Source: Diabrotica undecimpunctata
Taxonomy: Eukaryota; Arthropoda; Insecta; Coleoptera; Chrysomelidae
NCBI RefSeq assembly: GCF_040954645.1
Contig: NC_092805.1
Location: 71,099,186 to 71,163,185 of the forward strand
DNA: 64,000 nt
Reading direction: 5' to 3'
The position numbers were made by a program, and so were the translations under genes. The notes under the pieces were generated by a model. That model was given only the letters and a program-made list of their open reading frames with translations, did no database searches and was not told the origin of the DNA. The stretch's first letter is position 1. Each line of letters begins with the position of its first letter. Positions 5,591 through 41,922 of this stretch are shown here, one piece after another.

Positions 5591-8500
5591 CTAAAGAAAA
5601 ATATTACATTTGGTCAAAAAATCGATTATGCAATCGTAAATTAATCTATTTTGAGTCGCTAGGGCAGATAAAACGTTAAACGGAGATTTACCGGTAATAC
5701 GAACTATATTATTATATAATAAGGTGGATTCCAAATTATATTTGGCACAACCAAAAATTACATGATCTAGGTCACCTTCTACTCCACATTCCACACAGTT
5801 TTTACTCTCGATCACATGAATCCTTGCAAGATGAGCAGGAAAACAAGCATGTCCAAATTTAAGCCTAGATATGGTTGTTATATAACGCCTTGGGACATTA
5901 TAAGTTCTGTGCCAATGTGCAACAGGGACAGTTGTGTGTAAAGAAGTGTATCTATTTGGGTTGGTAAAACAAAACTCAGACCATAGGTCACTCCATTTAT
6001 ATTTTAAAACTGCCTTGCGTGAAGCAACCAAATCAGAAATACTGGGTAGAAATTCTGTGGTATCCACTGAATAAATACTTAATTTGGCTAGTTGGTCCAC
6101 ATGTTCATTATGTTTAATTCCACTGTGTGCTTTGGCCCATATAAATATCACATTTTTTTTATTTTCCTTAAAGTGTTTAACTAATTTTTTAATTAATATT
6201 ATGTAGGGATTGGAGTATGTGGTTGGAACAAAAGGTTGGTTAATGGCTGTGAGAACTGACATGGAATCTGAAACAATAATAACGGAGGAATCTCTGTTAG
6301 AAACAAAAACTAGGGCTTGATATATGGCAATTGCTTCCGCACTAAATATGGAAATATTTGCTTTTAATTTGAACATTTTTTCTACCTTCTCCATGGGGAT
6401 GTAAAAGGCACATCCTGTACCGTTTTCTGATTTGGAGGCATCCGTGTAGATAGTACTGTAGTAATCCCAATTGGATAAGATGCTTGTTATTATGTTGTTA
6501 TTTGCTCTTCCAGTGTTAACATAATTTGGTTTAATAAATTTAACGCTATAAAAAAGAGCTTCAAAATCATTTATATCTGTGTGTGATTTTAAATTAATAG
6601 CTTCATTAGCACAAACTGTGTTTTCTCTAAGAGCTTCACATAGGGTTGGAGAATTTTTCTTAATCCAATATTTATTCGTTAAATCATAATTGTTTAAATT
6701 TGTTAATTCGGTATAAAGGAAAGTGTTCTGGTGTTTAATTTTCAGTAAAAATTTTTCGGCCAAGAAATGTCTTCTAAGAGAAATTGGAGGCTCACGTGCT
6801 TCAACATAAAGGGGCTCAATAGGAGTTGTCTTCATGGCACCAATACAGATACGCAAACACTGGTTTATAAATATGTTTAATTTGTTTAGTAAGTTCTTGC
6901 TGGCAGATCCATATAACCAACATCCATAATCTATGATAGAGCGAATGTAAGTTCTATAAAAAAGTAAGGAAGTCTGAACATCTGTTCCCCACCAAGTTTT
7001 AGTTGTCATTTTCAGAAAGTTTAGGCCTTTTTCACATCTATTTAACATATATTCTATGTGAAATTTCCATGTGAGCTTGTGATCCAGTATAATGCCCAAA
7101 TATTTAATTACCTTTTTAAAAGGAATTTCTCGCTGTTTTACTATAAATGTTTCGATATTGGGAATATTATGTCTACTGAAAATGGTCACTGCTGATTTTG
7201 TGGCCGACAGCTGAAGGTGATTTTCTTCCAACCATATTTCTACAACGTTGTAGGTATCCATTAAAAATCCAAAAGCTTCATCTCTCTTCTTTGTTTCACA
7301 GTAAATGCAGAAGTCATCTGCATATTGGATGATCTTAAAAGGATATTTTTCCAACTTTAATTTATGTAGGTCAGCTGTGTATAAATTGAAAAGAAAAGGA
7401 CTTAAGACAGCTCCTTGTGGAATTCCTGTGAAAACATATCTTGGGCCTAATAAATGGTTGTTAAAATCCCTGACATAAACATGTCTTTCTGAATATAATC
7501 CGATAATAGCATACACTATTGCCTTAGGAATGTTAAAATCAATAATCATTTTTTTACTCAAAATATTTAAGTTTAAGGTGTCATATGCTTTCTCAATATC
7601 AATAAAAATTGTTGGAAGAAAGTTATTTCTAGAGAAATTATTTTGAATATTTGTTACTAAGGTTGTAAGTGCATCTAGCGTACCCACTCCTCTTTTGTAT
7701 GCAAATTGACAGGGCGTAAGCAGGTCTTTTTTATGTAGCCACCATTCCAGCCTATGTTTTATCATACGTTCGAAAGTTTTTTGCACACATGATAGCAGAG
7801 AAATTGGTCTATAAGAATGGGCCAAGTTAGGGTCTTTACCTTGTTTAGGAATCGGTGTGATTATAATTTTCCTAAAATCTTCAATGCACTCACCTGCAAG
7901 CATCTCATCAAAAATTTGTAGAAGAAAACTTTTTGCTATAATTGGTAGGTTCTCTAACATCGGATACTTTATTTGATCAAAACCCGGGGCAGTACTTTTT
8001 TTATTTCTTAAAGCATAATTTAGTTCATTAATGTGAAAATTATTTGCCAAAAAATGTTTTTTATCTAAGATCGTATGTTCGATATTTACAGTGAAAGGAA
8101 CAGTCTGGGGAGCTACATGATTAAAAAACTCATCTATTAAATCATCATTATGTGGCTTACCAATGTTTATTGTTTTACGATTCATTTTTTTTGCTTGTTT
8201 CCATATCATGCTAGTTGGAGTATTTTTGTTGAGATTGGAACACCATTCAATCCAACTTTTTTTAGCTTTTTCTTTTAATGTTCGTTTAGTAAGTGCCATG
8301 CATTTTTGGTATGCAAGAAAATTATCTTTTGTGGGGTTTTCTTTGTATACTTGCAGTACATGTTTCCTTTCAGAAATTATGTTGTCACATTCTGCATCCC
8401 ACCAAGGTGAAGGTGTTCGATTTTTGCACTTAAACGGTCTGTATTCTTTTAAAGTTCTTTGTGCCGCATTATTTATACAATTGATTAAGAATGCATATTT

Positions 8501-9319
8501 TTCTTTGGTGGTTGGATATTCTGCATCAGTAAAGTTATAAAAGTAGTCTTCCACAAACTCTTTATATTGTTCCCAATTAGCTCCTTTTAGGTTCCATCTA
8601 TATCGCGGAATTGTGATGTCCTGCGGAATTTGCTGCATTGCAAGAGTTATTTTTATCATAAAATGATTCGATCCAAGTGTGTCAGAGTAAACTGCCCAAT
8701 CTATATCACTAGCTACGTCCGAGGAGCAAAAGGTAACATCTATCATAGAATCATTGCATCCTGGCCGGGTAATACACGTGGGTTCGCCAGTATTCATAAC
8801 TACAAAATCACAATTATTGCTTGCTTCAATGAGTTGTTTACCAATAGAATCGTTTTTATGGGATCCCCAAGTAGCATGATGCGCGTTAAAATCCCCACCA
8901 ATAATACATGGAGTTGAAAACTGCGAAAAAATATTTACCCAATCAGTTGTGTTGGTTTTAATATCCGGTGACCTATAAACGGAAATTATACTTAAAGTTT
9001 TATTGTTGAATTTGATATTAATACCACAAACAAGAAGATCGACATTAAAATTGGAAACTATGCTTAATTCTAGGTGTGAAATCGACTTTTTGACCAAAAT
9101 GCAAATTCCTGAAAAACCATCTTGTCTATCTTTACGAATTACATTATAACCTACGAAACTATATACTTTTTTGGGTTTAAACCATGTTTCACTTATTATT
9201 GCTACATCAATATTATTATTTACAAGATAATGCATTAGACTATTTTTATTCGAAACAGCAGAACGTGCATTCCACTGACAAATATTTAATGTCTTTGGTA
9301 ATGGAGTGAAGGTTACTTT
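5591..9319 (-). CDS. I-type LINE ORF2: endonuclease, reverse transcriptase, RNase H
   Basis: Makes and integrates cDNA by nicking the target and priming reverse transcription. Residues below count from the first ATG at 9235. APE endonuclease: ETW (16-18), GGDFNAHH (113-120), GSNHF (188-192). Reverse transcriptase: PIPKQGKDP (461-469), FIDIEKAYD (544-552), GIPQGAVLSP (604-613), YADD (638-641). RNase H: YTDAS (930-934), SAEA (965-968), VSDS (988-991), HVDQLAK (1045-1051). A CX2C...H...C motif lies near 1166-1182. The open frame starts at 9319 and has no ATG before 9235, yet the conserved endonuclease motif ICQWNARS lies upstream of that ATG. I therefore place the functional start near 9319, with frameshift, reinitiation or a non-AUG start. 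It overlaps the ORF1 stop by a few bases. No stop interrupts about 1,242 codons. Confidence 0.93.
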   Translation of the reverse strand, partial: KVTFTPLPKTLNICQWNARSAVSNKNSLMHYLVNNNIDVAIISETWFKPKKVYSFVGYNVIRKDRQDGFSGICILVKKSISHLELSIVSNFNVDLLVCGINIKFNNKTLSIISVYRSPDIKTNTTDWVNIFSQFSTPCIIGGDFNAHHATWGSHKNDSIGKQLIEASNNCDFVVMNTGEPTCITRPGCNDSMIDVTFCSSDVASDIDWAVYSDTLGSNHFMIKITLAMQQIPQDITIPRYRWNLKGANWEQYKEFVEDYFYNFTDAEYPTTKEKYAFLINCINNAAQRTLKEYRPFKCKNRTPSPWWDAECDNIISERKHVLQVYKENPTKDNFLAYQKCMALTKRTLKEKAKKSWIEWCSNLNKNTPTSMIWKQAKKMNRKTINIGKPHNDDLIDEFFNHVAPQTVPFTVNIEHTILDKKHFLANNFHINELNYALRNKKSTAPGFDQIKYPMLENLPIIAKSFLLQIFDEMLAGECIEDFRKIIITPIPKQGKDPNLAHSYRPISLLSCVQKTFERMIKHRLEWWLHKKDLLTPCQFAYKRGVGTLDALTTLVTNIQNNFSRNNFLPTIFIDIEKAYDTLNLNILSKKMIIDFNIPKAIVYAIIGLYSERHVYVRDFNNHLLGPRYVFTGIPQGAVLSPFLFNLYTADLHKLKLEKYPFKIIQYADDFCIYCETKKRDEAFGFLMDTYNVVEIWLEENHLQLSATKSAVTIFSRHNIPNIETFIVKQREIPFKKVIKYLGIILDHKLTWKFHIEYMLNRCEKGLNFLKMTTKTWWGTDVQTSLLFYRTYIRSIIDYGCWLYGSASKNLLNKLNIFINQCLRICIGAMKTTPIEPLYVEAREPPISLRRHFLAEKFLLKIKHQNTFLYTELTNLNNYDLTNKYWIKKNSPTLCEALRENTVCANEAINLKSHTDINDFEALFYSVKFIKPNYVNTGRANNNIITSILSNWDYYSTIYTDASKSENGTGCAFYIPMEKVEKMFKLKANISIFSAEAIAIYQALVFVSNRDSSVIIVSDSMSVLTAINQPFVPTTYSNPYIILIKKLVKHFKENKKNVIFIWAKAHSGIKHNEHVDQLAKLSIYSVDTTEFLPSISDLVASRKAVLKYKWSDLWSEFCFTNPNRYTSLHTTVPVAHWHRTYNVPRRYITTISRLKFGHACFPAHLARIHVIESKNCVECGVEGDLDHVIFGCAKYNLESTLLYNNIVRITGKSPFNVLSALATQNRLIYDCIIDFLTKCNIFL

Positions 9320-10755
9320 TTACATGTGTCCTCCAACACTTTATTTATTCCTGTTTGAATTAAATCATTATTCAAATTTTTGATATCTTCAATGGTATGA
9401 ATACCTTTTAAAAATTCAACTATAAAATCTGCAATTGACTTTACAATGTTTTTGTTATTTAAATTTTGATAATTTGGTGGATTATTATTTCGAGGCAGTG
9501 GTTGATTAGGGCCAAACTGAAACGGAAACATCGGTTGTGGAGGAGGAGTGTCATTAGAAATTCGACGTTTTTTATTGCTATGGCCGGTAGGACTTCGTGT
9601 AGGATGGGTGGGCAAAACGTAATTGCTATTATTCTGAAAATTTGAGTGTAAAAGGGAGTTAGAATTTCCAGACTTAGATTCAATCGCTGGTAAAGGCGGA
9701 AAATTGGAGTTGGATAAAATAGAAAAACTATTGTTTACAGATATACCAGAATAAGACATTTCACAATATTCTTTTGCCTCAATAAAGGAAATATTTTGTT
9801 CAACCATAACATTCTTAATTTTACGTTGTTTTTCATAATGAGGACATTTTCTTGAAATAGAAACGTGGTCATTTGTTTTACAATATAAACAGCGAATTTC
9901 TGAATCGTGACAAACATGATTTTCAGCTTTTACATTACTACACTTAATACATAACTCTTCAATATTTTTACATTGCCTAGAAATGTGACCATAGCGTAGA
10001 CATCTGAAGCACTGTGTAACTCTGCTAAAAAACCGCTCCACCGAAAAATATACACTATTTATTGAAATATAACTAGGTAAAGTGTTCCCTTCAAAAGTTA
10101 CAATAATGGTTTTTTTGGGGACATACTGTATATCACCATCCTTTTCTATTCTACGATGTGTACGTTTAACATCAACTACCGTTGAAGGAGATTTTATGTT
10201 ATCTAAAATATATTTCGTATCGAATTGAGTATCAATATCTTTTATCAAACCCTTAATTTCTAATAAATGATTTGGTATAAACGCTACAAGATCATTTTCT
10301 GATAAAAGAGGATTGTTTACTAAAGCATTGGCATCAGAACATGTTTTTAGACTAACTTTTATTCTATTTTTTCCAACAGATCTAATTTGGTTAATATTGT
10401 TAACATTTAGTTTTTTGTGTAAGATATCTCCCACAAATAAGGGATGAAGACGGCCGGCATTTTCAATATTTTTTCGTTCGATAAAAACACAAATATTACT
10501 CAAATTATACTTATCTCCATTTCTTAGATTAAAAACTTTAGGTGTTTTATTTTGTTTATAAATATCCTTTTCTTTATCACTAATGACCTGACGACTGGTT
10601 TCAGCTGTTGTCTCAGAACTTAAAGTGGTATCCATGTCTTGTACGGGGACCGATAAATAATTTTCTGATTCCGCATCACTTTTAGAGTTATTTGCACTTA
10701 TTGTCTGGTTAATAGTTACACCTAACGGCGTCTTTCTTTTTAAAGCTTCCCCCAT
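9313..10755 (-). CDS. I-type LINE ORF1: nucleic-acid-binding gag-like protein with three zinc knuckles
   Basis: A 480-residue intact protein. Three CCHC-type knuckles: CFRCLRYGHISRQC (249-262, CX2CX4HX4C), a variant at 269-282 and CX2CX4HX6C at 289-304. The N-terminus is polar and disordered; the middle (about 75-240) has no motif I can name but resembles the region before the knuckles in I-clade ORF1. The tail after 340 is Asn/Pro/Ser rich. In this family ORF1 coats element RNA in a cytoplasmic particle. The ATG at 10755 is the first in frame, 192 bp from the element start. The stop at 9313-9315 overlaps the open frame of ORF2. Confidence 0.92.
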   Translation of the reverse strand: MGEALKRKTPLGVTINQTISANNSKSDAESENYLSVPVQDMDTTLSSETTAETSRQVISDKEKDIYKQNKTPKVFNLRNGDKYNLSNICVFIERKNIENAGRLHPLFVGDILHKKLNVNNINQIRSVGKNRIKVSLKTCSDANALVNNPLLSENDLVAFIPNHLLEIKGLIKDIDTQFDTKYILDNIKSPSTVVDVKRTHRRIEKDGDIQYVPKKTIIVTFEGNTLPSYISINSVYFSVERFFSRVTQCFRCLRYGHISRQCKNIEELCIKCSNVKAENHVCHDSEIRCLYCKTNDHVSISRKCPHYEKQRKIKNVMVEQNISFIEAKEYCEMSYSGISVNNSFSILSNSNFPPLPAIESKSGNSNSLLHSNFQNNSNYVLPTHPTRSPTGHSNKKRRISNDTPPPQPMFPFQFGPNQPLPRNNNPPNYQNLNNKNIVKSIADFIVEFLKGIHTIEDIKNLNNDLIQTGINKVLEDTCKK

Positions 10756-24733: not shown

Positions 24734-25588
24734 TTATTCAATTTCTTCATAATATTTAAAGATGTCATTGATATGAAACATGCCTCTTAGTCTATTATCT
24801 GTATCTATCAACACATAACTATTTAGTCCATTCTGATTTTCGATTCTGTATGGACCTTCAAACATTGGTTGTAATTTCTTACAACGATTTTCTGTAACAT
24901 TACTCTTTTTAAGTGAACGAATTAACACTTTGTCTCCTTTTTGAAATGTGATTGGTTTTTTTATTTTTCGATTTTGTCTTCTGATATATTTTTCAGCTTT
25001 CCTTCTATTTCTGTTATTCACTTTCTGCATTACTTGTTCTAACATATCCTGATTATATTCACTAATCCATTTTCTGTTTCCTATATGGCCAAACAATAAA
25101 TATTCTGGTACTTCCTCTGTATTTAAATGTGTATTATTTAAAAAATATTCTACTTGTGGTATATGTTGCTTCCATGTTTCATGTTGATCCTGACATACTA
25201 TCCTTAAATATTTTATAACTTCTTTAATATATCTTTCTGCAGGATTTGCCTGAGGATGTCTGATACTTGTAAAATGAATGTTGATTCCCTTTTTCTCACA
25301 AAATGCCCGAAATTTTTGGTTGTTAAAATATGTAGCGTTATCTATTATGCAATTTCTAAATGGTCCTATTTCTTTTGGAATTTTGGAAAATTTCTATAAA
25401 AATGGATTAATATATAATTTTAATGTTTTAACATTTGTTCTGGAGCAGGGATATAGTTTAATAAATTTTGTATATAAATCAACTATCACTAGTATATGCT
25501 TTTTTTCTGTTGGACTGGGAACTAAATTTAAAATAAAATCCATGGAAACTGTATGTAGTTTTTCATATACAATATACATTACATATAC
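24734..25588 (-). pseudogene. gypsy-2 integrase, one in-frame stop
   Basis: One minus-strand frame spans the catalytic core and C-terminal domain. It reads VSMDFI (first Asp), VDLYTKFIKLYPC, a TAG at 25394-25396, IIDNATYF (second Asp region), SIRHPQANPAERYIKEV (catalytic Glu region), WISEYNQ, then the basic domain FQKGDKVLIRSLKKSN and FEGPYRI. It ends at 24734 with NDIFKYYEE. The N-terminal HHCC zinc finger is missing where the R1-like LINE begins (~25592). Relative of gypsy-1 at 1-641. Confidence 0.88.
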
Positions 25589-25708: not shown

Positions 25709-25911
25709 GTGCTGTTCTCTTGGTCCGAGCAACCCAGCTGGAGATCTGGTATCCAACCCGGGTGGAAAGTTGGGTCGGGAACTGACGAGAGTGGGTGAAA
25801 TGGCCCTCCGAAAAGGGGGTTTGGCGTTGGGTTAACTACCCAACCCGGTAAAACCCTATAGTTACGAAATCGAAAGTCAAAAATGCCGGACGGAAATCTC
25901 GACGACGACCT
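25709..25911 (+). promoter_or_regulatory. 5' UTR of the RTE LINE, GC-rich with strong hairpins
   Basis: Clearly GC-richer than its surroundings. GTTGGGT/ACCCAAC form a perfect 7-bp stem with a 5-base loop at 25826-25844. Several non-LTR elements carry an HDV-like self-cleaving ribozyme here; I could not fit that fold by eye. Confidence 0.4.
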
Positions 25912-28852
25912 ATGCAACGAAATAAGGACCTGAATAATGGAAATAATGATCTTAAAGTATTTACCTGGAACGTTCGCACACTTAACGAACCTGGAAACAT
26001 CCGCAAACTGTGTGACATATTAGCACAATATAATGCTGATATTACTGCAATACAAGAAGTACGATGGACAGGTCATAGCATAATCCAAAAAGCAAACTAC
26101 AATATATACTATAGTTGTCATAGAACCAGACATGAATTTGGGACAGCCTTTATAGTCAATAATAAAGTCAAGCACTTGGTTATAGATTTTAAGCCGATAA
26201 ATCCACAAATAAGCTGCTTAAGGATCAGGGGCAAGTTTTTTAATATTAGCCTTATTAATGTACATGCCCCAACAGAGGACAAGCAAGACGAAGAAAAAGA
26301 CAATTTCTATGATGAATTAGAAAGAACATATGACAATTGTCCCAGAAATGACATTAAAATAATAATCGGTGATCTGAACGCAAAAATCGGAAGGGAAGAA
26401 ATATATCTACCGCACATTGGTAAATATAGTCTCCATAATAATACTAATTCGAATGGACACCGAGCAGTCACCTTCGCAGCCTCAAAGAACATGATCGTAG
26501 GAAGCACATGTTTTCTACACAAAAAAATACATATGGGGACTTGGACCTCGCCTGATGGATTTACGAACAACCAAATTGATCATGTGATCATAGATGCTAG
26601 ACACTTCTTCAACCTTATGGATGTCCGCACCTATCGAGGCGCCAATATTGATTCAGATCATTTTCTAGTTGGCACAAGAATTCGGGCTAGAATCTCAAAT
26701 GCGAAGAAGGAGAGAAGTACCAAAACAAGGCGCCTTAATATTGAACTCCTCAAAAACCCGCAAACGGTAGAAAGGTTTCAAAACTATATCGAAACTAAGT
26801 ACATAACTAAAGAGAATCTAACAATTAGTGAACAATGGGAAATGTGTAAAAATTACATTAAAGACGCAGCAAATAACATTCTAGGGCCGCAAAGACCACC
26901 ACCACGCAATGAGTGGTTCAATGCTGAGTGCGAGGACATTACAAGAAGAAAGAACAATGCATATAAACTGATGCAGCAAAGAAGAACCCGAGAAAAAGAA
27001 CAAAAATATAAAGATCTCAGAAGAGAAGAGAAGTACATCCATCGGAGAAAAAAGCGAACTTATGAAAATAGAATATTGGAAGAACTTGAGGCATTAATAA
27101 AGAAAAATCAAACAAGAAAATTCTATAAAAATCTAAATAAAGCAAGAAAAGAATTTAAACCAAGGATCGGACTATGTAAGGATAAGGAGGGGCATATACT
27201 CAATACAAAACAAGAAGTATTGAAAAGGTGGGTGAAACACTATAAAGTCCTGCTTACTATCGAAGTAGAAGATCCAAATCAACCACCCCCAGGAGCAAAT
27301 AACAATACACCATTGGAGCCTCCATCAATTCAGGAAGTACGGGATGCAATAAAACACCTAAAAAATAATAAATTTCCAGGAAGTGATGGTATACCCGCTG
27401 AACTTATTAAATGTGGAGGTGCTACTCTGACTAATCATATATATAAAATCATACTGAGAGCCTGGAATGAGGAACAAATCCCAGAAGAGTGGTGTATTGG
27501 GATCGTTTGCCCGCTACACAAAAAGGGCGGTGAATTAGAATGTAGAAACTATAGGGGAATAACCCTCCTTAATACAGCATACAAAATATTTTCGAGTATT
27601 TTATATGGTCGCCTGAGTGAATATTCAGAGGAGCTTCTTGGCGAATATCAAAGTGGTTTTAGGCCTGGTCGATCAACAACAGACCAGATCTTTGTGCTAA
27701 GGCAAATACTGGAAAAAACCAATGAATTTAATATCGATACATACCATCTTTTCGTAGATTTTAAATCGGCCTATGATAGTGTCCCAAAAAATAAATTGTA
27801 TGAAGCCATGGATGAATTTCACATTCCCGATAAACTGATAAGATTGGTTAAGGCTACAATGCGTAAAGTTGTTTGCAAAGTCCAAATACAGGGCGAACAA
27901 TCACAGGCATTTGAAACGCATGTTGGGCTGCGACAGGGAGATGCGCTGGCGTATCTCCTCTTCAACATAGCTTTGGAAAAGGCGGTCAGGGATGCCCAAA
28001 TAGACAGCAGAGGAAACATTTTTAATAAATCATCCCAAATTTTGGCATATGCAGATGATGTTGATCTAGTTGCCCGCACAACACGCAAGCTAGAAGAAAT
28101 GTATACCACCTTGTCACACGCCTCAAAAAATATGGGCCTGCAAGTAAATGAAAATAAAACTAAGATAATGGCATCAACACCCAACAATAGAGCCAGAAAC
28201 ATCGGCCACCAACTCACGGTTGATAATTCTACCTTTGAAGTGGTGGACAAATTCACATACTTGGGCTCCCTGATCACCAAGGAGAACGTCATAACGGAAG
28301 AAATCAAGCGAAGAATAATCCTAGCAAACAAATGCTATTTTGGACTGAGTAGACATATGAGAAGCAGAAACTTAAGCCAAAAAACAAAAATAACCATATA
28401 CAAAACCCTTATACAACCAGTGTTGACATATGGGTCAGAGGCATGGATCATTTCCAAGGCAGATGAAAATCTCCTGCTTATATGTGAACGAATGATCCTG
28501 AGAAGAATTTTTGGTGGCATCTGCGAAAATGGTGTTTGGAGAAGAAGGTACAACTACGAGATATATCACAGACATAAACATATAATTTGGTGGTAAAGAC
28601 GTAGTATCCTTTATAAAAATAGGAAGACTAAGATGGGCAGGACATCTGGCAAGATCACAGCAGAACAACCCTCCTAGAAGAATCCTTATGTCACAACCTG
28701 TGGGAAGTAGAAAAAGGGGTAGACCAAAACTCAGATGGAGGGATGGTGTAGATGAGGATGGTAGACAAATAGGCGCAGCAAACTGGCAACAGTTGGCAAT
28801 GGATAGAACCGACTGGCGTAATAGACTTGGGAAGGTCGAGGCTCTTTTATAG
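25912..28852 (+). CDS. RTE LINE endonuclease/reverse transcriptase, single late frameshift
   Basis: 894 codons are open from the ATG at 25912 to a TAA at 28594-28596. APE endonuclease: TWNVRTLN (catalytic Asn 20), IQEVRW (Glu 49), IIGDLNAKIG (151-160), SDHFLVGT (from 248). Reverse transcriptase: NNKFPGSDGIPAELIK, CRNYRGITLLN, FVDFKSAYDSV (about 614), GLRQGDALAYLLF and YADDVDL (about 713). A 1-base indel near 28575-28595 moves the last ~85 residues to frame 2: SFIKIGRLRWAGHLAR, RKRGRPKLRWRDG, stop at 28850-28852. The catalytic residues are intact. No in-frame ATG precedes 25912 after the previous stop. Apart from the shift the gene could be functional; a sequencing error cannot be excluded. 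Confidence 0.9.
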
Positions 28853-29262: not shown

Positions 29263-30190
29263 TCATCCTGTCTCAGTTTCTTTCTCTATCATGGACTTTC
29301 TCTTCATAATTTTTGTTACTTGGTCTATAAGAAATTCAAAGTTCTCTCTGCTTTCCATAGCGACACGTATCAAGTTGTCAGAGGATATCTCTTCTAGCTT
29401 TGTTCGCATTATATGTTGTTCCGGCGCAAACACCTTGCACCTAAAGATACAATGCTCCGCATCGTCTTCTACGTTACATATGACACAATTATCATCGCTG
29501 GTTTTTTGTATACGATACGTGTAAGACCTGAAAGATCCATGTCCGGTCAGGAACTGCATAAAATAAAAATTTACTCGTTTGAACTTACATTTGTACCACT
29601 CTATCACATTGGGTATTAGTTTTTTGGTCCATTGTGCCTTGTCTATCTGTGCCTCCCATTCTGCTTGCCATTCTGTTAGTAATTGTTCTCTAATGGCGGC
29701 TCTGACCTGAGGTAGGTGGCCGTCTCGAGAGTTATAGAGCGTCTGCCGTTCTTTAGCTAGGAGGTGAATAGGGAGCGTGCCCGCTATTACCTGTAGGGCC
29801 ATCGTTGAAGTAGTCCTGTACGCACTTGTAACTTTTAATAGAGGCTTTCGCTGGGCTCTGGTTATCATGTCTCTGTAATTTTTGTTAATTTAGTACGTCT
29901 GCCCAAATGGGGGTTCCATATAATATAGTCGACTGTACCACTTGCAGGTACATTCTTCGTTTTTGGCTGCTTGGGCCTTCTATATTCGGCATGATTCTTT
30001 GTAGGGCTGCCGTTCTTTCTTCCGCCCTCTGGACTACATTTGTCAGGTGTTTTGTGAACCTTAGGCCTGTGTCGATGTATATGCCTAGGTATTTTGCACA
30101 ATTTGTAGGGATTATAATAGTACTACCAATTTGAAAAGTCATCTCGGGTCTTCGTCGTGGTCCTCTTAGTATAACCACTTCCGTTTTGCT
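29263..30190 (-). pseudogene. R1-like LINE reverse transcriptase C-terminal part
   Basis: Two frames join near 29885. Frame one (30178-29885): TFQIGSTI, CAKYLGIYIDTGLRFTKHL, QRIMPNIEGP and YGTPIWADVL, the connector after the palm of R1-clade enzymes. Frame two (29868-29263): RAQRKPLLKVTSAYRTTST, QVIAGTLPIHLLA, then CVICNVEDDAEHCIFRC, the CCHC-type C-terminal motif. The upstream palm and endonuclease are absent (5' truncation), and a 1-base indel separates the halves. Confidence 0.8.
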
Positions 30191-30195
30191 TCCTG

Positions 30196-31702
30196 CTTAT
30201 AAGTTTATAACCTAGATATATTACTTCTTTTTGAAAAAATGTACATTTTTCTTGATTTATTTTTAGTCCAACTTTGTCTAATCTGTTGATTATAATTTTT
30301 AGGTGTTTCTCATGATCTTCAGCCGTTTTAGAAAAAATTAATATATCATCAATATAGTGAATTACAAAATGTTCATATTGATCCAGAATATCATGAAGAC
30401 ATCTACATAGAGCACTGCAAGATGATTGAAGTCCAAATGGTACTACTTTGAATTGATATACTACTCCATCGATCTGAAATCCCGTATACTGTCTACTTTT
30501 TCTTTCTAGTGGTATTAACCAGAAACTATGCTGTAAATCGATTTTAGTGAAAAATGACATTCCTGTAATTCTTCCTAGTATTCCATCTATACTCATTGGT
30601 GCTTCAAATTGCTTTTCAGTAATCTTGTTAATATTCCTTGCATCCAAACATAACCTGATTTCACCTGATCTTTTACGTATTACTACTATAGGGTTTATAA
30701 AACGTGTATCTGCCTTCTCAATGATTCCATCTTCTTACATATTATTAATCGTTCTGTTTACTTCTTCTCTGTATTTATATGGTATTGGGTATGATTTTGT
30801 TTTAAAATCTTTTTCTTCTTTAACTTTTATACTATGGATATAATTTTGTGCAATTCTATTTTCTTTATTGACGTCATTCTAAGTCCCTTGTGTTGCTGCA
30901 ATATGGAAAAGACTATTGATTTATATTCTTTAGGGCAATTAACTTTTATCACATCTTCTTCTCTACAAATAAAATTATTCTTCATTATGTACTCATTATT
31001 CCTTGCTTCCAATTTTTTGCACTCCACCTCGTAGGCATCCATCTGCTTAAAATTTCCATTCCTTAAATATTCACTACAATTTTTCTTTACATTCTTTTGG
31101 GACATTTCCCTATCATCAAAATACATTTCTTCTTCATAAACATCATTATTTTCTTTTAATAATATCCTATCAACTCTTATTCCTTCTTCCACCTCATCTT
31201 TCTGCATAAACTTAATTACTTGCCCTTCCAAAGTTACCATTTTATTTTCAAAATCTATTTTTACTTTCTTCTTTTCCAATTCATCATTTCCCATTAATAT
31301 ATCAACACATAAATCCTTGACAATAAATCCTTGCATATTAATTTCTGTATTAAGAATATTAATTTTAAAATTGGCTAGTTTATCAATTTCACCCAACTTC
31401 TTATTATTTACACCAACAATTTTAATTTTTGGAATCTTTATTATATCTGATAGTTATAGTGTATTAAAAATAAAATTCTCCGAGACTAAAGTACTTTCTG
31501 AACCAGTATCTATCATAATTTTAATCATTTTATTTTTGGCCATAGCATTTATATAAATTAAATTAACAGATTCAATAATTTTATCTTCATCTAAAGAAAT
31601 AAATTCAGAAGGTTTTTCATAATAGCAAGGGCCCAATTGTAATTCAGAAAGTTTACTGAACACAATTTTGATTATTAGAATTGTCAGATTGTATCTGACC
31701 AC
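30196..31702 (-). pseudogene. gypsy-2 protease and reverse transcriptase, stops in frame
   Basis: One frame with two stops. Protease: IMIDTGSESTLVS (DTG active site; codons 31560-31500), a TAA at 31454-31456, then the flap and C-terminal part with GFIVKDLCVDILMGND. A 130-residue linker follows. Reverse transcriptase: YPIPYKYREEV, a stop at about 30737, EDGIIEKADT, LCLDARNIN, FFTKIDLQHSFW, FKVVPFGLQSS and HYIDDILIFSK (catalytic YIDD), then YLGYKL at the break with the R1-like LINE. RNase H is not present. Confidence 0.88.
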
Positions 31703-35664: not shown

Positions 35665-35668
35665 GTAT
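35665..35668. repeat. 4-bp target duplication GTAT, left
   Basis: GTAT here and at 41919-41922, immediately outside the LTRs of gypsy-3. Confidence 0.7.
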
Positions 35669-35858
35669 TGTACCGTTTTTAAATAAAACGAGCGGTTCTA
35701 ATTTATGTAAATATATTTATTTACATCACGATAGTCCCTTATCAACTAAAAAACCTCAATCATCGTTACATCGAGAATGCCAAGGAATAAACATTCCAGA
35801 TTCATACTTCTACGAACTGTGACACGTAACCGCATCGGAGATGGGCTATTTCGTTACA
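35669..35858 (-). repeat. 3' LTR of gypsy-3 (190 bp)
   Basis: TGTACCGTTT to TCGTTACA. Shorter than its partner, which has a TA array plus ~60 bp extra. Confidence 0.9.
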
Positions 35859-36400
35859 CTGCTCCCCTCTTAGATCTGAACGTCCCAATCAGCAACTTTA
35901 CATAAAGGCTCAGTATGGCGGAATCTACAGGACTCTCCAGCTCTGCATTGACGTCTACTGTCTTTGAAGGACACGATCTCTTTGGATTAATGCAACACAC
36001 AGTAATTCGTACACCGGTTTCTCGGAAGATGAATTCAAGCATGCTTCTGACAATCTTCCAATCTAGATTTTCTAGCGCATAGCCTATTTGTGGTAAGGCC
36101 AAATTCTTGATGTCATAGTTGCACACGATTTTCTTCAAATTAGTTAGAGTATGCCATAATCCTCGTAGCTTGCCCTGTCTGTATATGACTGCTGTATATT
36201 CTGGTCACCATATACAGCAAAAATCGAGGACCATCTTCTAATCTCAGTACTCTTCCAACTTTAAGCTGCTGATTTTTTAACTCGTCCGAACGACCGAACT
36301 TCTTATAAAATACGGATGAGATTCCTTAAGTCGTCTCAAGATCTTGAGCAACACAGTGGGCTAGAGAGACGAAACACTAAAAAGATCCTGCTCAACTTCT
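35854..36400 (-). pseudogene. Macrodomain (OARD1-like, ADP-ribose fold) at the end of the gypsy-3 polyprotein
   Basis: Downstream of the integrase, in the same strand and initially the same frame, comes QDLFSVSS (from about 36390). After a 2-base shift in a CT run (36361-36370) the text continues LAHCVAQDLETT, a stop, GISSVFYKKFGRSDELKNQQ, KVGRVLRLEDGPRFLLYMVT; after another shift, NLKKIVCNYDIKNLALPQIG, YALENLDWKIVRSML and FRETGVRITV. This follows the OARD1/Poa1p-type macrodomain element by element: GDLF start, A/S-H-C strand, G-I-A-x-x-F-K-K-x-F-G loop, lysine-rich strand, MPRIGCGLD-like loop, W-x-x-V helix, ITV strand. Such domains bind ADP-ribose and many remove it from proteins. The frame ends at 35854-35856, just inside the LTR. 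Function in the element is inference. Confidence 0.82.
35859..35871 (-). promoter_or_regulatory. Polypurine tract of gypsy-3
   Basis: AAGAGGGGAGCAG on the minus strand directly before the 3' LTR; primes plus-strand cDNA. Confidence 0.75.
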
Positions 36401-37510
36401 GTGGTCACGCCGAATCTAGCACTCTTTCTCTCTGCGTAATTTGACATAAGTTCATTAAAGGTTGGTCGCCGGTCATCTTTGATCTCATGTTGAAGGGTTA
36501 GTGCTTCTTCTATTTCATTAGAGCTATCATAAGGTGCAAGACGATTTATGTAAACTACTTTTGCTTTACCTTTCGGCAACTTCTTAATTCGGTATATTAC
36601 GTCATTTATTATCTTTTTAATTTCATACGGACCTTTCCATTGTCTTTGCAGTTTGGAAGATAAGCCACGACGACGTTGTGGATTGTAAAGTCAAACAAGA
36701 TCACCTACTTCATAGCTTTCATTCTTGCATCGAGAATCAAATTGATCCTTCATTCTGTCACTGGCTAACTGGATGTGTTGTCGGGCAAGTTGTGTTTGGA
36801 CAGGTGTTTACCCATCGTTCGATTCATCCTCTCGACCATTCCATCTAATTAAGGATGCAGGGGTGTCGTTTTGGAAAAGGGTTGACTCGAAGTCTCGCCC
36901 TTGGTCGGAGTGTATCTCCAACGAAACACCAAATTGGCTAAAGAATTCTTTAACAAGTACCTCTGCAACGGTAGCAGCTTCTTGATTTGGTATCGCATAG
37001 GCCTCTGTCCATTTCGTAAAATAATCCATGGCAACCAGGATATATTAATTTCCAACATTCGTCTCTGGAAGTGAATCTTCAATGTCGATTGCTACTCTTT
37101 CCATAGGACTACCAATATTATATTGTTTCATGGGTGCCCCCTTTTTACTAACTGGACCATTACATCATCTATACAGTTCACTCAATAGAACCGTTCTCGA
37201 ACCTTTTGCACAGTTTTTGTAATACCAAAGTGTTCACCTGATGCACCGTCATGCAACTGACGCAATACTTCTGACACTTTCCTTTTAGGTACAATTAACT
37301 AATCTTAGATTCTGTACCATCATCGTTCTCAAAGGTTCTATACAGAAGATCATCTTTTAGCACTAGGCAATTCCATTGGCTCCAGTAACACTTGACTTCT
37401 GGACTATATGCACTAATGTCTTGCCAAGAAGGTCTTTCACTTCGACGCATCTATACTCACTCAGCAATACTCTTTTTATACATGGATCATCTGCTTGAGC
37501 GTCTTGTAGC
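36401..37510 (-). pseudogene. gypsy-3 integrase, multiple lesions
   Basis: From right to left: remnants of the zinc-finger region, then MDYFTKWTEAYAIPNQEAA (first catalytic Asp) and FGVSLEIHSDQGRDFES (second Asp) at 37029-36870. A frameshift follows near 36850, then the C-terminal domain with KKLPKGKAKVVYINRLAPYD at about 36590-36530. The stretch after it (EEALTLQHEIKDDRRP, ERKSARFGVTTEVEQ) links integrase to the macrodomain. Several stops between 37100 and 37500. Confidence 0.85.
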
Positions 37511-37512
37511 TG

Positions 37513-39396
37513 TTAAGTCTGCCATTGATCAATAATGACGGTGGTTCGTCTCACGGAGCAAAGTCGTTCTTCTAATTTAAGGCAGTGATTACAATTTGTA
37601 CTGCACGGTCGTCTCGAAAGAGCATCAGCATTTAAGTGAACTCTTTCAGCCCTGTGTTCGATCTCGTAATTATATTCTTGTAATCGTTCTGACCATCTCG
37701 CCGTCTGGCCCTCTGGATTACGGAATTGTAGAAGCCATTTTAGAGCGGCGTGATCCGTACGAAGAAGAAACTTTCTGCCATACAAGTATTTATGGAAATG
37801 CTCGCAAACCTTAACTATGCCTAGCAATTCTCTTCTGGTAACGCAACAGTTTCCTTCTGGTTTCGAAAAGACTTTGCCAAAGTAAGCGGTGACTTTCTCC
37901 TGCCTATTTTGAATTTGGAAGAGAACAGCTCCTATTGCACTATTGCTGGCATCGGTGTCAAACAAAATTTTTCCTGCCTGTCTAGGGTAGCTTAAAATTG
38001 GTGCACTGATCAGAGCCATTTTTAAGTGTTCGAAAGCTCTTTGATACTCTTCGCTCCATGTATATTCTTTGCCTTCTTCTGTCAACTTTGTTAATGACTT
38101 GGAGATGTTGGCAAATCCTTTGACAAAACGTCGGTAATATGTACATAGACCAAGAAAACTTCTAATTTCGTGTTTATCTCTTGGCACTGGCCAATCCTTA
38201 ATTGCTGCAAGTTTTTCATGATCAGTTGTTACACCATTACTTGCTACAATATGTCCCAAATACTTCACTTCTCGTCGAAACAAGTGAAATTTCCTCGGAC
38301 TTTACTTCAAATTCAGTCCCCGCAATCGCTGAAAGACATCTGTCAGATTATTGGTATGTTCATCGAAGGATCTTCCAACCACAATTACATCATCCAAATA
38401 AACCAGGCATGTTTTCCATGTTTGACCTCTTAAAACTACCTCCATTAATCTTTCAGATGTGACAGGGGCATTACATAAACCAAAGGGCATAACTGTGAAC
38501 TGCCAAAGCCCCGATCCTATCGAGAATGCAGTTTTTTCCCGATCAGATGGCTTCATGTCTACTTGCCAATATCCACTTTTCAGATCGAGTGTGGAGAACC
38601 AACGAGAACCAGAAAGTGTATCCAAAGTATCGTCTATTCTGGGCAAAGGATAACTGTCTTTTTTAGTTACCGCATTCAGCTGTCGGTAGTCAATACAAAA
38701 ACGCGTTGAACCATCTTTCTTCTTTACTAGCACTACTGGTGATGTCCCTGGACTGTTTGATGGTTCAATTACCCCTTGTTTGTTCATATATTTGATGATG
38801 TCTTCGGCTTCATCTCTTTTCGCAAATGGAAGTCATCTAGGTTGTTGTCTGATTGGCTGAGCATCTTCGGTATTAATTTTATGCTTTACTATGTTTGTTT
38901 TACCCTTATCCTGCTTATCAATGGCAAAAACATCTTGAAATTCTATCAAGATAGACTTCACTTTTTTAGTTCGTTCATCATCAAGATATTGGCATGTTTT
39001 TATCACCATCTAAACAAGCTCCTTTGGATACTTAGATTTCGATGATTTCTCATTAGTCTTCATAGAACAAATCGAAGTCACGAGAATACACTGTCCAATC
39101 AAACTTCTTTTGCTTAACTTAATATCAGTTCCCTTTAAATTCATACCTCTTACAGGAACGACATCTCGAATTCTTACCAATGCTTTTGCCGTTAGGAACA
39201 CGGCATTGTCCACATTTTCGACCATCCTTAAACTTCCCTCTCGGCAGTAACCGTCAGGTCTGGTCATCAGAATTTTCTCACTATTACCGGGTATTGTTAC
39301 GTCACAAGTAGTTAGTAAGCTGATAACATCTTCTTTGCCTTCATGAAACGGCAACTCTTCACCACTGAGTTCAAGAACTCCATTTTTGAAATTCAA
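37513..39396 (-). pseudogene. gypsy-3 reverse transcriptase and RNase H, three stops
   Basis: One frame with stops at 39010-39012, 38833-38835 (TGA for Arg in PRRLPF) and 38302-38304. The N-terminal linker (FKNGVLELSGEELPF) follows protease. Reverse transcriptase: GVIEPSNSPGTSPVVLVKKK, FCIDYRQLNAVT, FSTLDLKSGYWQV, MPFGLCNAPVT, CLVYLDDVIVVG (catalytic YLDD), then YLGHIVASNG. RNase H: LFDTDASNSAIGAVL (first Asp), RRELLGIVKVCEHF (Glu), LRTDHAALKWL (second Asp), NADALSRR. Linear order and spacing are normal for Ty3/gypsy. Confidence 0.92.
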
Positions 39397-39689
39397 TACA
39401 GCTCCAACTTTTCCTTAGTAAATCCATCCCTAATATGAACTCGTAGGAGATCTCTGTAAGTAATACTTTGTATTTCACCATATGTATTAATTATACATAT
39501 GGTGATAATATAAATAATAGCTTCGCCATATGTATTAATTATCTCACCAGTTGCTGTTCTAAGCTTTACTGTTGCAGGCGATAATTTAAGACAGCCTCGT
39601 ACTACTTCTGGACGTGCAACAGTTTTTGTTGCACCTGTATCTACCAAAAACGATCTATATTTATTATTGATACGACCCTCGATGTACAA
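39393..39689 (-). pseudogene. gypsy-3 retroviral-type protease with a 48-bp internal duplication
   Basis: SFLVDTGATKTVARPEVV carries the DTG active site. The flap region is disturbed by an in-frame insertion: a 17-bp direct repeat (39478-39494 and 39526-39542, 48 bp apart) and a perfect 12-bp hairpin (39476-39504), reading as a repeated INTYGE. The frame shifts near 39410 before joining the reverse transcriptase frame. The protease would cut Gag-Pol. Confidence 0.82.
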
Positions 39690-40083
39690 GTTATGAATTC
39701 CACCTGAGGACGTAATGTTAACAGTTACTATGGGGGCTAAGTTTCTCGAGATCGGTAGTTGCCCCTAGGTGTCGACCCGTTCTAGTTTTCCGACTGTTGT
39801 ATCATTTTCTTGCAATTACGGCGAATGTGACCTACGTCACCACAATTCCAACATCTGGGCTCGCGTCTCTTCGACATCGTGTTACGAACTTCCTTTTGTG
39901 CTATTTCTTTCAGACGTTGATCGTCGCCTTCTTCAATGGTTCTTACTCGATGGGTCCGTGAAGTTTGACTAGCTATTTCATGTTCCAAGGAAATAGCGAG
40001 CGCTTCCTCTAAAATTTTCGTTCTTGCTAGTCGTAACGCTTTCTGTAATTCATTGTCTTTTAACCCATTGACGAAGATATATA

Positions 40084-40628
40084 GAAAGAATAAACAAGGG
40101 CAGAGCAGCGACCCGTGCCTTAAACTCTCTTCTCTGACAAAAAACAATTCGACGAGAAACCAAAAAACACATTTACGGTAGTATAGTTCAAAGTATTACA
40201 CTTTACGGTTCGGAAGTATGGGACGTCACCAAAGCTAATAAAAACAAACTTATGACGACAGAAATGGATTATTTGAGACGAAGCTGCGGTAGATCGAAAC
40301 TGGAGAGAGTTAGAAACGAACAAATAAGAAACGAAATGAAAATGGAGAGAAATATCAATGATGACATAGAAAGAAAACAATTAATCTGGTTCGGACATGT
40401 TAAAAGAATGCCAGAGTACAGATGGCCTAGGAGAGTAAGAGTAAGAGAGTTTCCTGAAAGAAGAAAGAGAGGACGACCACGGAGAAGTTGGCGCAACGAT
40501 ATTGATGAAGCAATGGCGGCAAGAGACTTAGAAGAGGCAACTGCATATGACAGAAAAAGATGGAAATTGGGGGCGGAGAAGCGGCGACAGCCGTAATAAA
40601 TCCGTTATTATATATATATATATATACA
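40084..40628 (+). mobile_element. 5'-truncated LINE fragment with apparent 5' inversion, inside gag
   Basis: Flanked by the 10-bp duplicate AAGATATATA (40074-40083 and 40629-40638). From about 40166 the plus strand reads QSITLYGSEVWDVTKANKNK and continues to 40596 with the basic LINE tail, then a short TA tail. The first ~60 bp read on the minus strand as a reverse transcriptase motif (FFVREESLRHGSLLCPCLF, compare LRQGxxLSPxLF), so the 5' segment seems inverted, as in twin-primed LINE insertions. Confidence 0.75.
40166..40596 (+). pseudogene. LINE C-terminal domain (RTE-like) in the inserted fragment
   Basis: Open frame: LYGSEVWDV, MDYLRRSCGRSKLERVRNEQ, QLIWFGHVKRMPEYRWPRRV, RRKRGRPRRSWRNDIDEAM, ending QP and stop. 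This is the end of an endonuclease/reverse-transcriptase protein; the catalytic part is missing. Confidence 0.8.
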
Positions 40629-41299
40629 AAGATATATACAGCAATTTCTTCTAAAATGTTGTCTGGTGCCTCTGTATAAGCTAACCGCACAATACGAGCA
40701 ACACCTGCTTCAAACTTTTGCAAATTTTCACTTGCTCGTTGAATTCTACTATTTAGTTGTGCTTTGTAGTCTTATTGTAGATGGGCATCTCCGTAACGCT
40801 TGTCTAGTCGAGTGAACAAGGTCTGGTAACATTTTTCTTGACCCTTAGGAATCGATTTTAGGATATCCGCAGCATCACCTCATAAAGCAGCAGTCAAGGA
40901 AACCGCTTTTTCTTGTTCTGTCCAATGATTCGCTATCGCAATAGCTTCAAATTGTCTAATATATATGGGCCAAGAAGACTTTCCATCAAATGGTGGCAAT
41001 TTAAATCTCATATGATGTGTCGTTTCGTCTCTAGGTGCTTCTTCTTCTACTACCGAATCTAAAACTACTGCATTAACTGGTGGTAGCACTTTCGTATTGG
41101 TTATCATGATCTCTAATTGATTGATCTCCTTTTCTACCTTATCGAATGTTCTAAAAACTTCTTTAAATTTCTCATTCTTCTGACTACATACTTCGTCGAA
41201 TCTTCTAGAAACATTTGCGAATTTCTCGTCGTTTTGTCTAGCGTCTACGTCTTTAATAATTTGAGATGTTTCATCGAATCTTTCAACATTTTTTTTCAA

Positions 41300-41572
41300 G
41301 TTTCTTCAATAATTTGGACATCATTCAAGTTTCAACATCTTCTTGGACCCGCTGCAGTCTTCATCGCGTTCTTCTAGTTACTCACGCAAGTGTTTTACTG
41401 AAAGTTGTACTAGCAGCATCTTTGGTCAGGCACACACGTACGTTTTAAATGTTCTTTTTTTTTACAAAGATCACTACCGAACTACGCAGATGTTTCCGAC
41501 GAACTATACTTTTCAAAAGTTCAAAAGTCTTTTTCAAAAGTCACTACTGAATTTATTTTTAAATAAATCAAT
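41300..41572 (-). other. gypsy-3 5' untranslated region
   Basis: Between the primer-binding site and Gag. Several short frames, none convincing. Confidence 0.55.
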
Positions 41573-41593
41573 TATCCTCACACCGTGACACCA
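41573..41593 (-). promoter_or_regulatory. Primer-binding site of gypsy-3
   Basis: Just inside the 5' LTR the minus strand reads GT, then TGGTGTCACGGTGTGAGG, complementary to a tRNA 3' end in CCA. Confidence 0.7.
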
Positions 41594-41595
41594 AC

Positions 41596-41703
41596 TGTAC
41601 CGTTTTTAAATAAAACAAGCGGTTCTAATTTATGTAAATATATTTATTTATAAGTTTACGGCACGATAATATCTTATCAACTAAAAAACCTAAATCATCG
41701 TAA

Positions 41704-41770
<67 letters not shown>

Positions 41771-41918
41771 GTTATTATGTACTAGAATACTCTGGAGTAG
41801 TTCACCTCTATCCTTCACGTTAAAAGCGCATCGAGAATGCCAACGATCGAATATTCCAGATCCAAACTTCTAAGAACTGTGACACGTAACCGCATCGGGG
41901 ATGGGCTATTTCGTTACA
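41596..41918 (-). repeat. 5' LTR of gypsy-3 (323 bp)
   Basis: Same ends as 35669-35858. Includes (TA)n at 41706-41767 and ~60 bp absent from the other LTR. Confidence 0.9.
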
Positions 41919-41922
41919 GTAT

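What the first reader, a model, noticed from the sequence alone, without database searches (positions are those of the whole stretch)
35854..36400. Macrodomain carried at the C-terminus of a Ty3/gypsy polyprotein
After the integrase C-terminal domain, the gypsy-3 frame runs straight into a protein that follows an OARD1/Poa1p-type macrodomain in order (DLFSV start, AHC strand, GISSVFYKKFG loop, KVGRVLRLEDG strand, LALPQIG loop, DWKIV helix, ITV strand) and ends at the 3' LTR. Macrodomains bind or remove ADP-ribose and are used by some RNA viruses against host ADP-ribosylation. A retroelement carrying one could counter a PARP-type defence or process an RNA end; both ideas are inference. I do not know of a standard gypsy lineage with this domain.
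Basis: partly seen in the sequence, partly recalled or inferred. Interest (0 to 1): 0.87.

Follow-up and report, generated by a model that had tools for sequence, protein, structure and literature searches.

The report
Jumping gene carrying an ADP-ribose-binding-type domain
A very abundant retrovirus-like jumping gene in this genome carries, fused to its DNA-inserting enzyme, a domain related to OARD1, a protein that removes ADP-ribose marks, followed by a zinc finger; the domain has been kept by selection but lacks the usual catalytic lysine, so it may read such marks rather than erase them.

Summary
The window holds a decayed Ty3/gypsy element (minus strand, 35669-41918, target-site duplication ATAC). 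Between integrase and 3' LTR lies an OARD1/TARG1-type macrodomain (about 36402-35995), split across frames here; two pieces match only OARD1, collinearly. Other copies in the same genome settle membership. In 20 of 20 copies fetched for long frames, integrase C-terminus, macrodomain and a CCCH zinc finger form one open frame ending at the polypurine tract; the domain is 52/136 identical to human OARD1, ungapped, E 6.6e-28. In 12 of 12 copies chosen by reverse transcriptase alone it sits at the expected distance; 9 are open, pN/pS 0.18, about 1 in shifted frames. The TARG1 catalytic lysine is replaced in 85 of 85 open domains (R 84, T 1). I found no such architecture in the held papers; macrodomain ORFs are reported for fish retroviruses. 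Best reading: an integrase-borne module that binds ADP-ribosylated targets, catalysis lost or altered. Function is inferred.

The parts
41596..41918 (-). 5' LTR (TGTAACGAAATAGCC...ACGGTACA), with a TA microsatellite inside
   Evidence: pairs with the 3' LTR: 90 nt at 90% and 109 nt at 85% identity; ends placed
41919..41922 (-). target-site duplication ATAC, 5' side
41579..41593 (-). primer-binding-site-like TGGTGTCACGGTGTG two bases after the 5' LTR
   Evidence: sequence; the tRNA assignment (Leu-like) is recall only
41315..41419 (-). remnant of the Gag N-terminal SAP domain (decayed, with stops)
   Evidence: tblastn of a native Gag head, E 6.8e-33 over window 41120-41419; SAP over Pfam cut-off in 2 native copies
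39782..41305 (-). Gag, decayed, with CCHC zinc knuckle in piece 39785-40195
   Evidence: Pfam zf-CCHC 26.4 bits, cut-off 20.8
39396..39764 (-). aspartic protease piece
   Evidence: Pfam Asp_protease_2 24.9 bits, cut-off 24.3; two other protease models just under theirs
38302..38832 (-). reverse transcriptase piece
   Evidence: Pfam RVT_1 104.1 bits
37513..38301 (-). RT C-terminus and RNase H
   Evidence: Pfam RT_RNaseH_2 98.9 bits, RT_RNaseH 97.9 bits
36700..37512 (-). integrase zinc-binding and core region, decayed and shortened
   Evidence: DNA tiles match other copies, which hold some 330 bases more in the core; no protein scan of this stretch in the window
36403..36690 (-). integrase C-terminal (GPY/F, SH3-like) domain and linker
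   Evidence: Pfam Integrase_p58_C 41.3 bits, cut-off 27
35995..36402 (-). OARD1/TARG1-type macrodomain, split over frames with a stop in this copy
   Evidence: two pieces each match only OARD1 below E 0.1; native copy L031 E 6.6e-28
35915..35947 (-). remnant of the CCCH zinc finger (CRAGESCRFRH; first Cys lost here)
   Evidence: motif intact in 58 of 60 open tails and 40 of 40 in L080-L119; Pfam zf-CCCH over cut-off in 2 of 4 copies scanned
35870..35872 (-). family stop codon TAA, overlapping the start of the polypurine tract
   Evidence: TAA at TAAGAGG in 20 of 20 copies L031-L050
35859..35871 (-). polypurine tract AAGAGGGGAGCAG
35669..35858 (-). 3' LTR
35665..35668 (-). target-site duplication ATAC, 3' side

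Best explanation
SHOWN: a Ty3/gypsy family of high copy number whose Pol carries, after the integrase SH3-like C-terminus, an OARD1/TARG1-type macrodomain and a CCCH zinc finger. The module is in frame with integrase; the macrodomain is present in every RT-anchored copy checked (12) and is under purifying selection (not shown for the zinc-finger tail). INFERRED: it sits where chromoviruses carry a chromodomain and works in an analogous way, as a binding module on integrase. The macrodomain binds ADP-ribose on chromatin proteins or DNA, and the zinc finger grips nucleic acid, so that the integration complex is held at or led to ADP-ribosylated sites. The lysine-nucleophile chemistry of TARG1 has been given up (Lys to Arg), while most ADP-ribose-pocket positions are kept.
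For: Homology 52/136 identical, ungapped, E 6.6e-28 to OARD1; profile of 7 copies 1.2e-30. One frame for integrase C-terminus, macro and CCCH in 20 of 20 copies chosen for long frames and 40 of 40 chosen by frame-length class. Present in 12 of 12 RT-anchored copies at the expected distance. pN/pS of macro 0.18, bootstrap 0.11-0.24, against 1.02 and 0.89 in shifted frames. Position after the integrase C-terminal domain. Lys84 site R in 84 of 85, T in 1; TARG1 pattern met in 0 of 85, but met in the genome's OARD1-like gene. Of 14 loop and pocket positions identical in human OARD1 and that gene, 9 are kept in one D-type copy, L067. CCCH finger resembles CPSF4 fingers, E 3.8e-6.
Against: No binding, structure or insertion-site data. 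The second Gly of the phosphate loop GxG is Ala or Val in 85 of 85, which could weaken ADP-ribose binding. Pocket positions are kept no better than the rest (9/14 against 31/51, Fisher p = 1). Selection on the CCCH tail is not shown (pN/pS 0.51, shifted frames 0.89 and 0.63). Deletion derivatives keep macro and CCCH open although RT, RNase H, most of protease and part of the integrase core are gone (L031, L041, L067, L073; 18 of 20 in L080-L099 show the shortened core), so the module may act with Gag or RNA rather than through integrase. Whether protease cuts it free of integrase is unknown.
Confidence: 0.4

Rival explanations
1. Eraser and counter-defence: the domain removes ADP-ribose from the element's RNA, cDNA, Gag or integrase, undoing PARP-type modification, with a catalytic residue set different from TARG1; the CCCH finger delivers it to RNA.
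For: Nearest relatives are hydrolases: OARD1 and DarG. SCO6735, of the same class, lacks both TARG1 catalytic residues and still removes thymidine-linked ADP-ribose (PMC9411070, passages). Asp125 site is D in 62 of 85. Gag-macro derivatives keep the module. A PARP-family protein, ZAP, restricts human retrotransposition (PMC4441479, title and start of abstract in a listing; that ZAP is PARP13 is recall).
Against: Lys84 site is never Lys (0 of 85); TARG1 K84A fails to rescue DarT toxicity (PMC8501950, passages).
Confidence: 0.27
2. A nucleic-acid-binding or structural tail: the macro fold was kept as scaffold (dimer, Gag or RNA contact, VLP packaging) and no longer deals with ADP-ribose.
For: GxG to G-H-A and loop 1 GAGIA to TKGIS; fused to a CCCH finger; kept in derivatives without RT.
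Against: Adenine-site Asp, the H-C pair and Thr83 are conserved (42, 43, 41 and 43 of 43), and Asp125 in most copies (62 of 85); L054 shares the S35A change (sequence), so that change is not a sign of decay.
Confidence: 0.23
3. A host-gene fragment that one copy picked up or inserted into, not part of the element.
For: Retroelements do capture gene pieces (recall).
Against: 12 of 12 RT-anchored copies; one frame with integrase and CCCH in 69 of 108 loci (54 plus 15 that its filter dropped); purifying selection; only 38-39% identical to the genome's own OARD1-like gene.
Confidence: 0.01

Closest known systems
OARD1/TARG1 (C6orf130) macrodomain hydrolase
   Same: Same fold family by sequence, ungapped over the whole domain, 38-40% identity.
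   Different: Catalytic Lys84 replaced, GxG loop altered, TARG1 signature not met; fused to integrase and a CCCH finger; encoded by a retroelement.
Chromoviruses (Ty3/gypsy with a chromodomain at the integrase C-terminus)
   Same: An extra domain at the integrase C-terminus (chromodomain position: PMC3605345, start of abstract); both folds handle covalent marks (recall).
   Different: No chromodomain found; the added domains are a macrodomain and a CCCH finger.
Fish epsilon-like endogenous retroviruses with extra ORFs for macro domain proteins
   Same: Reverse-transcribing LTR element that carries a macrodomain (PMC4977317, passages, citing Basta et al. 2009, which is not held).
   Different: There described as an additional open reading frame in a vertebrate retrovirus; here fused to integrase of a Ty3/gypsy element. 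Which macrodomain subfamily the fish ORFs belong to was not seen.
DarG (DarTG antitoxin) and SCO6735
   Same: ALC1/TARG1-like macrodomain class; DarG models match the element domain (far under the NCBIfam cut-off).
   Different: Bacterial proteins; DarG keeps the lysine, SCO6735 has Gln at that site (PMC9411070, passages), the element has Arg.

Membership tests
Ty3/gypsy LTR retrotransposon | two LTRs starting TG and ending CA, with target-site duplication | tested here: met
   (ATAC on both sides)
Ty3/gypsy LTR retrotransposon | domain order protease-RT-RNaseH-integrase (integrase last) | tested here: met
   Pfam pieces in order in the window; native pieces in part
Ty3/gypsy LTR retrotransposon | polypurine tract next to the 3' LTR and a tRNA-like PBS after the 5' LTR | tested here: inconclusive
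   polypurine tract present; PBS-like TGG... present, tRNA not identified
Ty3/gypsy LTR retrotransposon | RT phylogeny within a named clade | not tested
   no reference RT set was used
OARD1/TARG1 macrodomain (homology) | full-length sequence homology to OARD1 | tested here: met
   E 6.6e-28, 136 residues ungapped; profile 1.2e-30
OARD1/TARG1 macrodomain (homology) | Pfam Macro PF01661 over its cut-off | tested here: not met
   13.4-14.6 bits against 22 in 4 of 4 copies; no Pfam hit on L054 either
TARG1-type hydrolase (catalysis) | catalytic lysine 84 | tested here: not met
   R in 84 of 85, T in 1
TARG1-type hydrolase (catalysis) | aspartate 125 | tested here: inconclusive
   D in 62, E in 23 of 85
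TARG1-type hydrolase (catalysis) | pattern TKx(30,35)Px[IL]GxGxD (PMC6397177, passages) | tested here: not met
   0 of 85 element copies; met in L054
TARG1-type hydrolase (catalysis) | hydrolysis of ADP-ribosyl bonds | not testable with these tools
   needs purified protein
CCCH zinc finger | C-x7/8-C-x5-C-x3-H | tested here: met
   58 of 60 open tails, 40 of 40 in L080-L119 (25 of these also); Pfam zf-CCCH over cut-off in 2 of 4 copies
chromovirus | chromodomain after integrase | tested here: not met
   no chromodomain among Pfam matches up to E 10 (window pieces) or E 1 (4 copies)
SAP-domain Gag | Pfam SAP over cut-off | tested here: met
   29 and 26.5 bits, cut-off 23.9, in 2 of 2 copies scanned, L076 and L078

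The most novel reading that the evidence does not exclude
A retrotransposon lineage that chooses where to insert by reading ADP-ribose: its integrase carries a captured OARD1 macrodomain turned from eraser to reader, plus a CCCH finger, so that insertions are steered to PARP-marked chromatin or DNA ends. This would be an ADP-ribose counterpart of chromovirus chromodomain targeting.
Probability: 0.25. Interest if true: 0.92.

Novelty: new variant of a known kind. Interest (0 to 1): 0.74.

Why it matters
It would link a mobile element's integrase directly to ADP-ribose signalling, which marks DNA breaks and some antiviral responses (recall). The family fills the 150-row list of each of three genome searches (one row is a host-type gene), with thousands of unscored first-look candidates and recurring open-frame lengths. 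It is therefore a natural experiment: the domain can be expressed from existing copies, and insertions can be compared with a sister family that lacks it. It bears on whether LTR elements target or resist PARP activity.

Tried and rejected
Host-fragment or chance explanation: rejected. 'TARG1-like eraser' as a membership claim: rejected on the catalytic signature, kept as a rival mechanism. The idea that loss is concentrated in the ADP-ribose pocket: tested and not supported (9/14 kept against 31/51, p = 1). Recent capture from this genome's own OARD1-like gene: not supported, because the element domain is no closer to L054 (38-39%) than to human OARD1 (39-40%), while L054 and human share 50%. 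Other genomes: viral contigs scanned with the macro piece, the RNase H piece and a domain profile and genome contigs with the profile gave no relative; both are virus or prokaryote collections, so this says nothing about other animals. The 5.8-billion protein search could not be made. A first script for codon counts lost the + strand copies; its counts were dropped and redone. The filter in turn dropped 15 tails that are naturally one residue shorter; one search shows that all 15 keep the CCCH motif. One search gave a first estimate (macro pN/pS 0.29, 43 copies).

Full report
What was claimed.

Checking the window. The motifs are present, but spread over two frames with a stop, so this copy is broken. 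I searched the pieces apart. Piece 36143-36325 matches OARD1 residues 37-86 (E 6e-6) and piece 35857-36204 matches residues 92-144 (E 6e-5). In each search OARD1 is the only family below E 0.1. Two collinear, adjacent matches from separate frames are not chance. NCBIfam DarG (3.4e-5, far under its cut-off) and a PHROG named phosphatase (9.9e-5) also match the second piece. Pfam Macro does not.

The element. LTRs at 35669-35858 and 41596-41918 share 90 nt at 90% and 109 nt at 85% identity. They start TG, end CA and are flanked by ATAC on both sides. Inside, on the minus strand, Pfam finds CCHC, aspartic protease, RVT_1, RNase H and the integrase C-terminal domain in order. The macrodomain therefore lies inside one inserted element. 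At roughly 10-15% LTR divergence the copy is old (inference).

Other copies. The window's assembly (G000, 1.74 Gb, unnamed) gave 150 matches of 150 scored (5687 first-look candidates) for the 116-aa piece, all at E 2.6e-34 or better. Of the 30 fetched loci, which include the window's own copy, 26 show the integrase C-terminus and 27 the N-terminal half of the macrodomain upstream. In L006, L010, L027 and L029, internal deletions join earlier gene parts straight to the macrodomain. I then took 20 copies because their open frames were long. In 20 of 20, integrase C-terminus, macrodomain and CCCH tail share one open frame that ends in TAA at TAAGAGG, the polypurine tract; 19 of 20 run on into an LTR start, and one (L046) into a TA repeat. 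Two LTR types, starting TGTAACGAAAT and TGTTACGAACA, follow the same coding end.

Homology at full length. The native domain (L031) matches OARD1 over 136 residues without a gap: E 6.6e-28, 52 of 136 identical. A profile of seven copies gives 1.2e-30. After it comes a C-x7-C-x5-C-x3-H finger, over the Pfam zf-CCCH cut-off in 2 of 4 copies scanned and closest in the PDB to CPSF4 fingers (3.8e-6 with one copy; only 0.0014 with the profile). Pfam Macro stays under its cut-off in 4 of 4, and no Pfam model hits the genome's own OARD1-like gene.

Is it fixed in the lineage? Copies found through the domain are biased, so I searched with the RT piece (150 scored of 15,485 first-look candidates; all 150 are close to the window's RT, 91% identical or more, so more distant relatives are not sampled). 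All 12 hold the macrodomain at the expected distance; 9 of 12 are open over the whole domain, 3 are broken or partial. Four of the 12 copies also stand in the macro-anchored lists.

Selection. In the RT-anchored copies (9 open, 8 distinct sequences) pN/pS of the macrodomain is 0.18, bootstrap 0.11-0.24; read in the shifted frames it is 1.02 and 0.89. In the larger set of 108 loci (106 distinct copies, two were fetched twice) the macrodomain is open in 85. pN/pS is 0.29 for macro (shifted frames 1.11 and 1.14), 0.39 for the integrase C-terminus (1.27 and 0.83) and 0.51 for the tail with the CCCH finger (0.89 and 0.63). So selection is clear for the macrodomain and not demonstrated for the tail; within the two frame-length classes the tail ratio is 0.88 and 1.29, with few changes. 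The 108 loci were chosen by protein similarity or frame length, which lowers pN; the RT-anchored value is free of that bias for macro. Integrase C-terminus, macro and CCCH tail are open in one frame in 54 of 108 by the filter, and in 69 of 108 once the 15 tails that are one residue shorter are counted. In L080-L119 it is 40 of 40, all with the CCCH motif; these 40 were chosen for long frames.

Architecture classes. A search with human OARD1 (150 scored of 4795 candidates) gave 149 element-like rows plus one different gene. Open frames are at least 900 aa in 84 of 149, 1413 or 1414 aa in 34, 920-923 aa in 17, and at least 1800 aa in 6. I read only pieces. Two of two copies of the 1803-1806-aa class begin with a SAP-type head, Gag, CCHC and protease in the macro frame; one of these copies also has its RT in a 1806-aa frame (C3:58468709). 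RNase H and integrase core of that class were not scanned apart. Two of two copies of the 1413 class have Gag in another frame, which overlaps the start of a frame with protease and RT in the macro frame. Two of two of the 921 class begin with Gag in the macro frame. In L031, L041, L067 and L073 Gag is followed, after the gag/protease junction, by an integrase with a shortened core and the macrodomain, without RT and with at most a short RNase H stretch. In L080-L099, chosen by frames of 920 to 932 aa, 18 of 20 show the shortened core; L094 and L095 do not, and L032, also with a 921-aa frame, has a longer core, so frame length alone does not define the class. SAP and Retrotrans_gag are over Pfam cut-offs in 2 of 2 copies scanned.

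Catalytic residues. PMC6397177 (passages) gives K84 as nucleophile, D125 as partner, and the pattern TKx(30,35)Px[IL]GxGxD. In 85 open copies the K84 site is R in 84 and T in 1. The D125 site is D in 62 and E in 23. The second Gly of GxG is A in 83 and V in 2. The pattern is met in 0 of 85. In the window's copy the sites read R and E. The genome's OARD1-like gene L054 (760-aa frame, 50% identical to human) keeps the pattern. TARG1 K84A fails to rescue DarT toxicity (PMC8501950, passages). But SCO6735, with neither residue, still hydrolyses DNA ADP-ribosylation (PMC9411070, passages), so loss of lysine does not prove loss of catalysis. Pocket positions are kept at the same rate as the rest (9/14 against 31/51).

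Mechanism. The added module sits where chromoviruses carry a chromodomain (PMC3605345, start of abstract). I think a binding role on integrase is most likely (0.4), then an unusual hydrolase (0.27), then a scaffold or nucleic-acid role (0.23). That deletion derivatives keep the module without RT speaks for a role with Gag or RNA as well, or simply for their youth. None of this is shown by experiment.

Known or not. In the held papers, 'macrodomain' with 'retrotransposon', 'gypsy' and 'integrase' gives 0 papers. 'Macro domain' with 'LTR retrotransposon', 'integrase' and 'ADP-ribose' gives 0. 'Macro domain' with 'gypsy' gives 1, a review that mentions macro domain ORFs in fish epsilon-like retroviruses (passages). 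Looser searches, of which I saw listings only, showed no integrase-macro fusion by title or abstract: 20 of 265 listed; 16 of 16; 12 of 223; 15 of 282; 5 of 5; 5 of 5. Repbase, subscription papers and eukaryote protein databases were not searched, so earlier annotation is possible. Hence: new variant of a known kind.

Noticed in passing
window 40138-40596 (+): ORF that reads (by recall) like the C-terminus of a LINE reverse transcriptase, lying antisense inside the decayed gag: probably a nested LINE insertion.
   Followed up: no
window 5591-10755 (-): Two long ORFs (1242 and 480 aa) that look like a LINE with long open frames (endonuclease-RT-RNase H and a CCHC ORF1), by recall.
   Followed up: no
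window 25852-28596 (+): 914-aa ORF resembling a LINE endonuclease-RT, by recall.
   Followed up: no
window 148-573 (+), 24734-25393 (-), 30123-31453 (-): Pieces of other Ty3/gypsy-like elements (RT at 30261-30785 is 28% identical to this one); tblastn of the macrodomain pieces finds no second macrodomain in the window.
   Followed up: partly
L054 (G000 C3:100934209-100934598, -): OARD1-like gene with a 760-aa frame: long low-complexity N-terminus, one canonical TARG1-type macrodomain, then a second diverged macro-like stretch (19% identical to human OARD1).
   Followed up: partly
L074, L075: In the 1413-aa class Gag and Pol lie in different overlapping frames, while in the 1806-aa class they are one frame: a switch between frameshift and fusion inside one family.
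   Followed up: partly
L031, L040, L041, L056, L067, L073: Deletion derivatives joining Gag to an integrase remnant, macro and CCCH; apparently amplified non-autonomous elements, several with a long open frame.
   Followed up: partly
G000 C3:108401758, C3:108410407, C2:157827204: Pfam Macro matches over cut-off, probably exons of ordinary host macrodomain genes.
   Followed up: no
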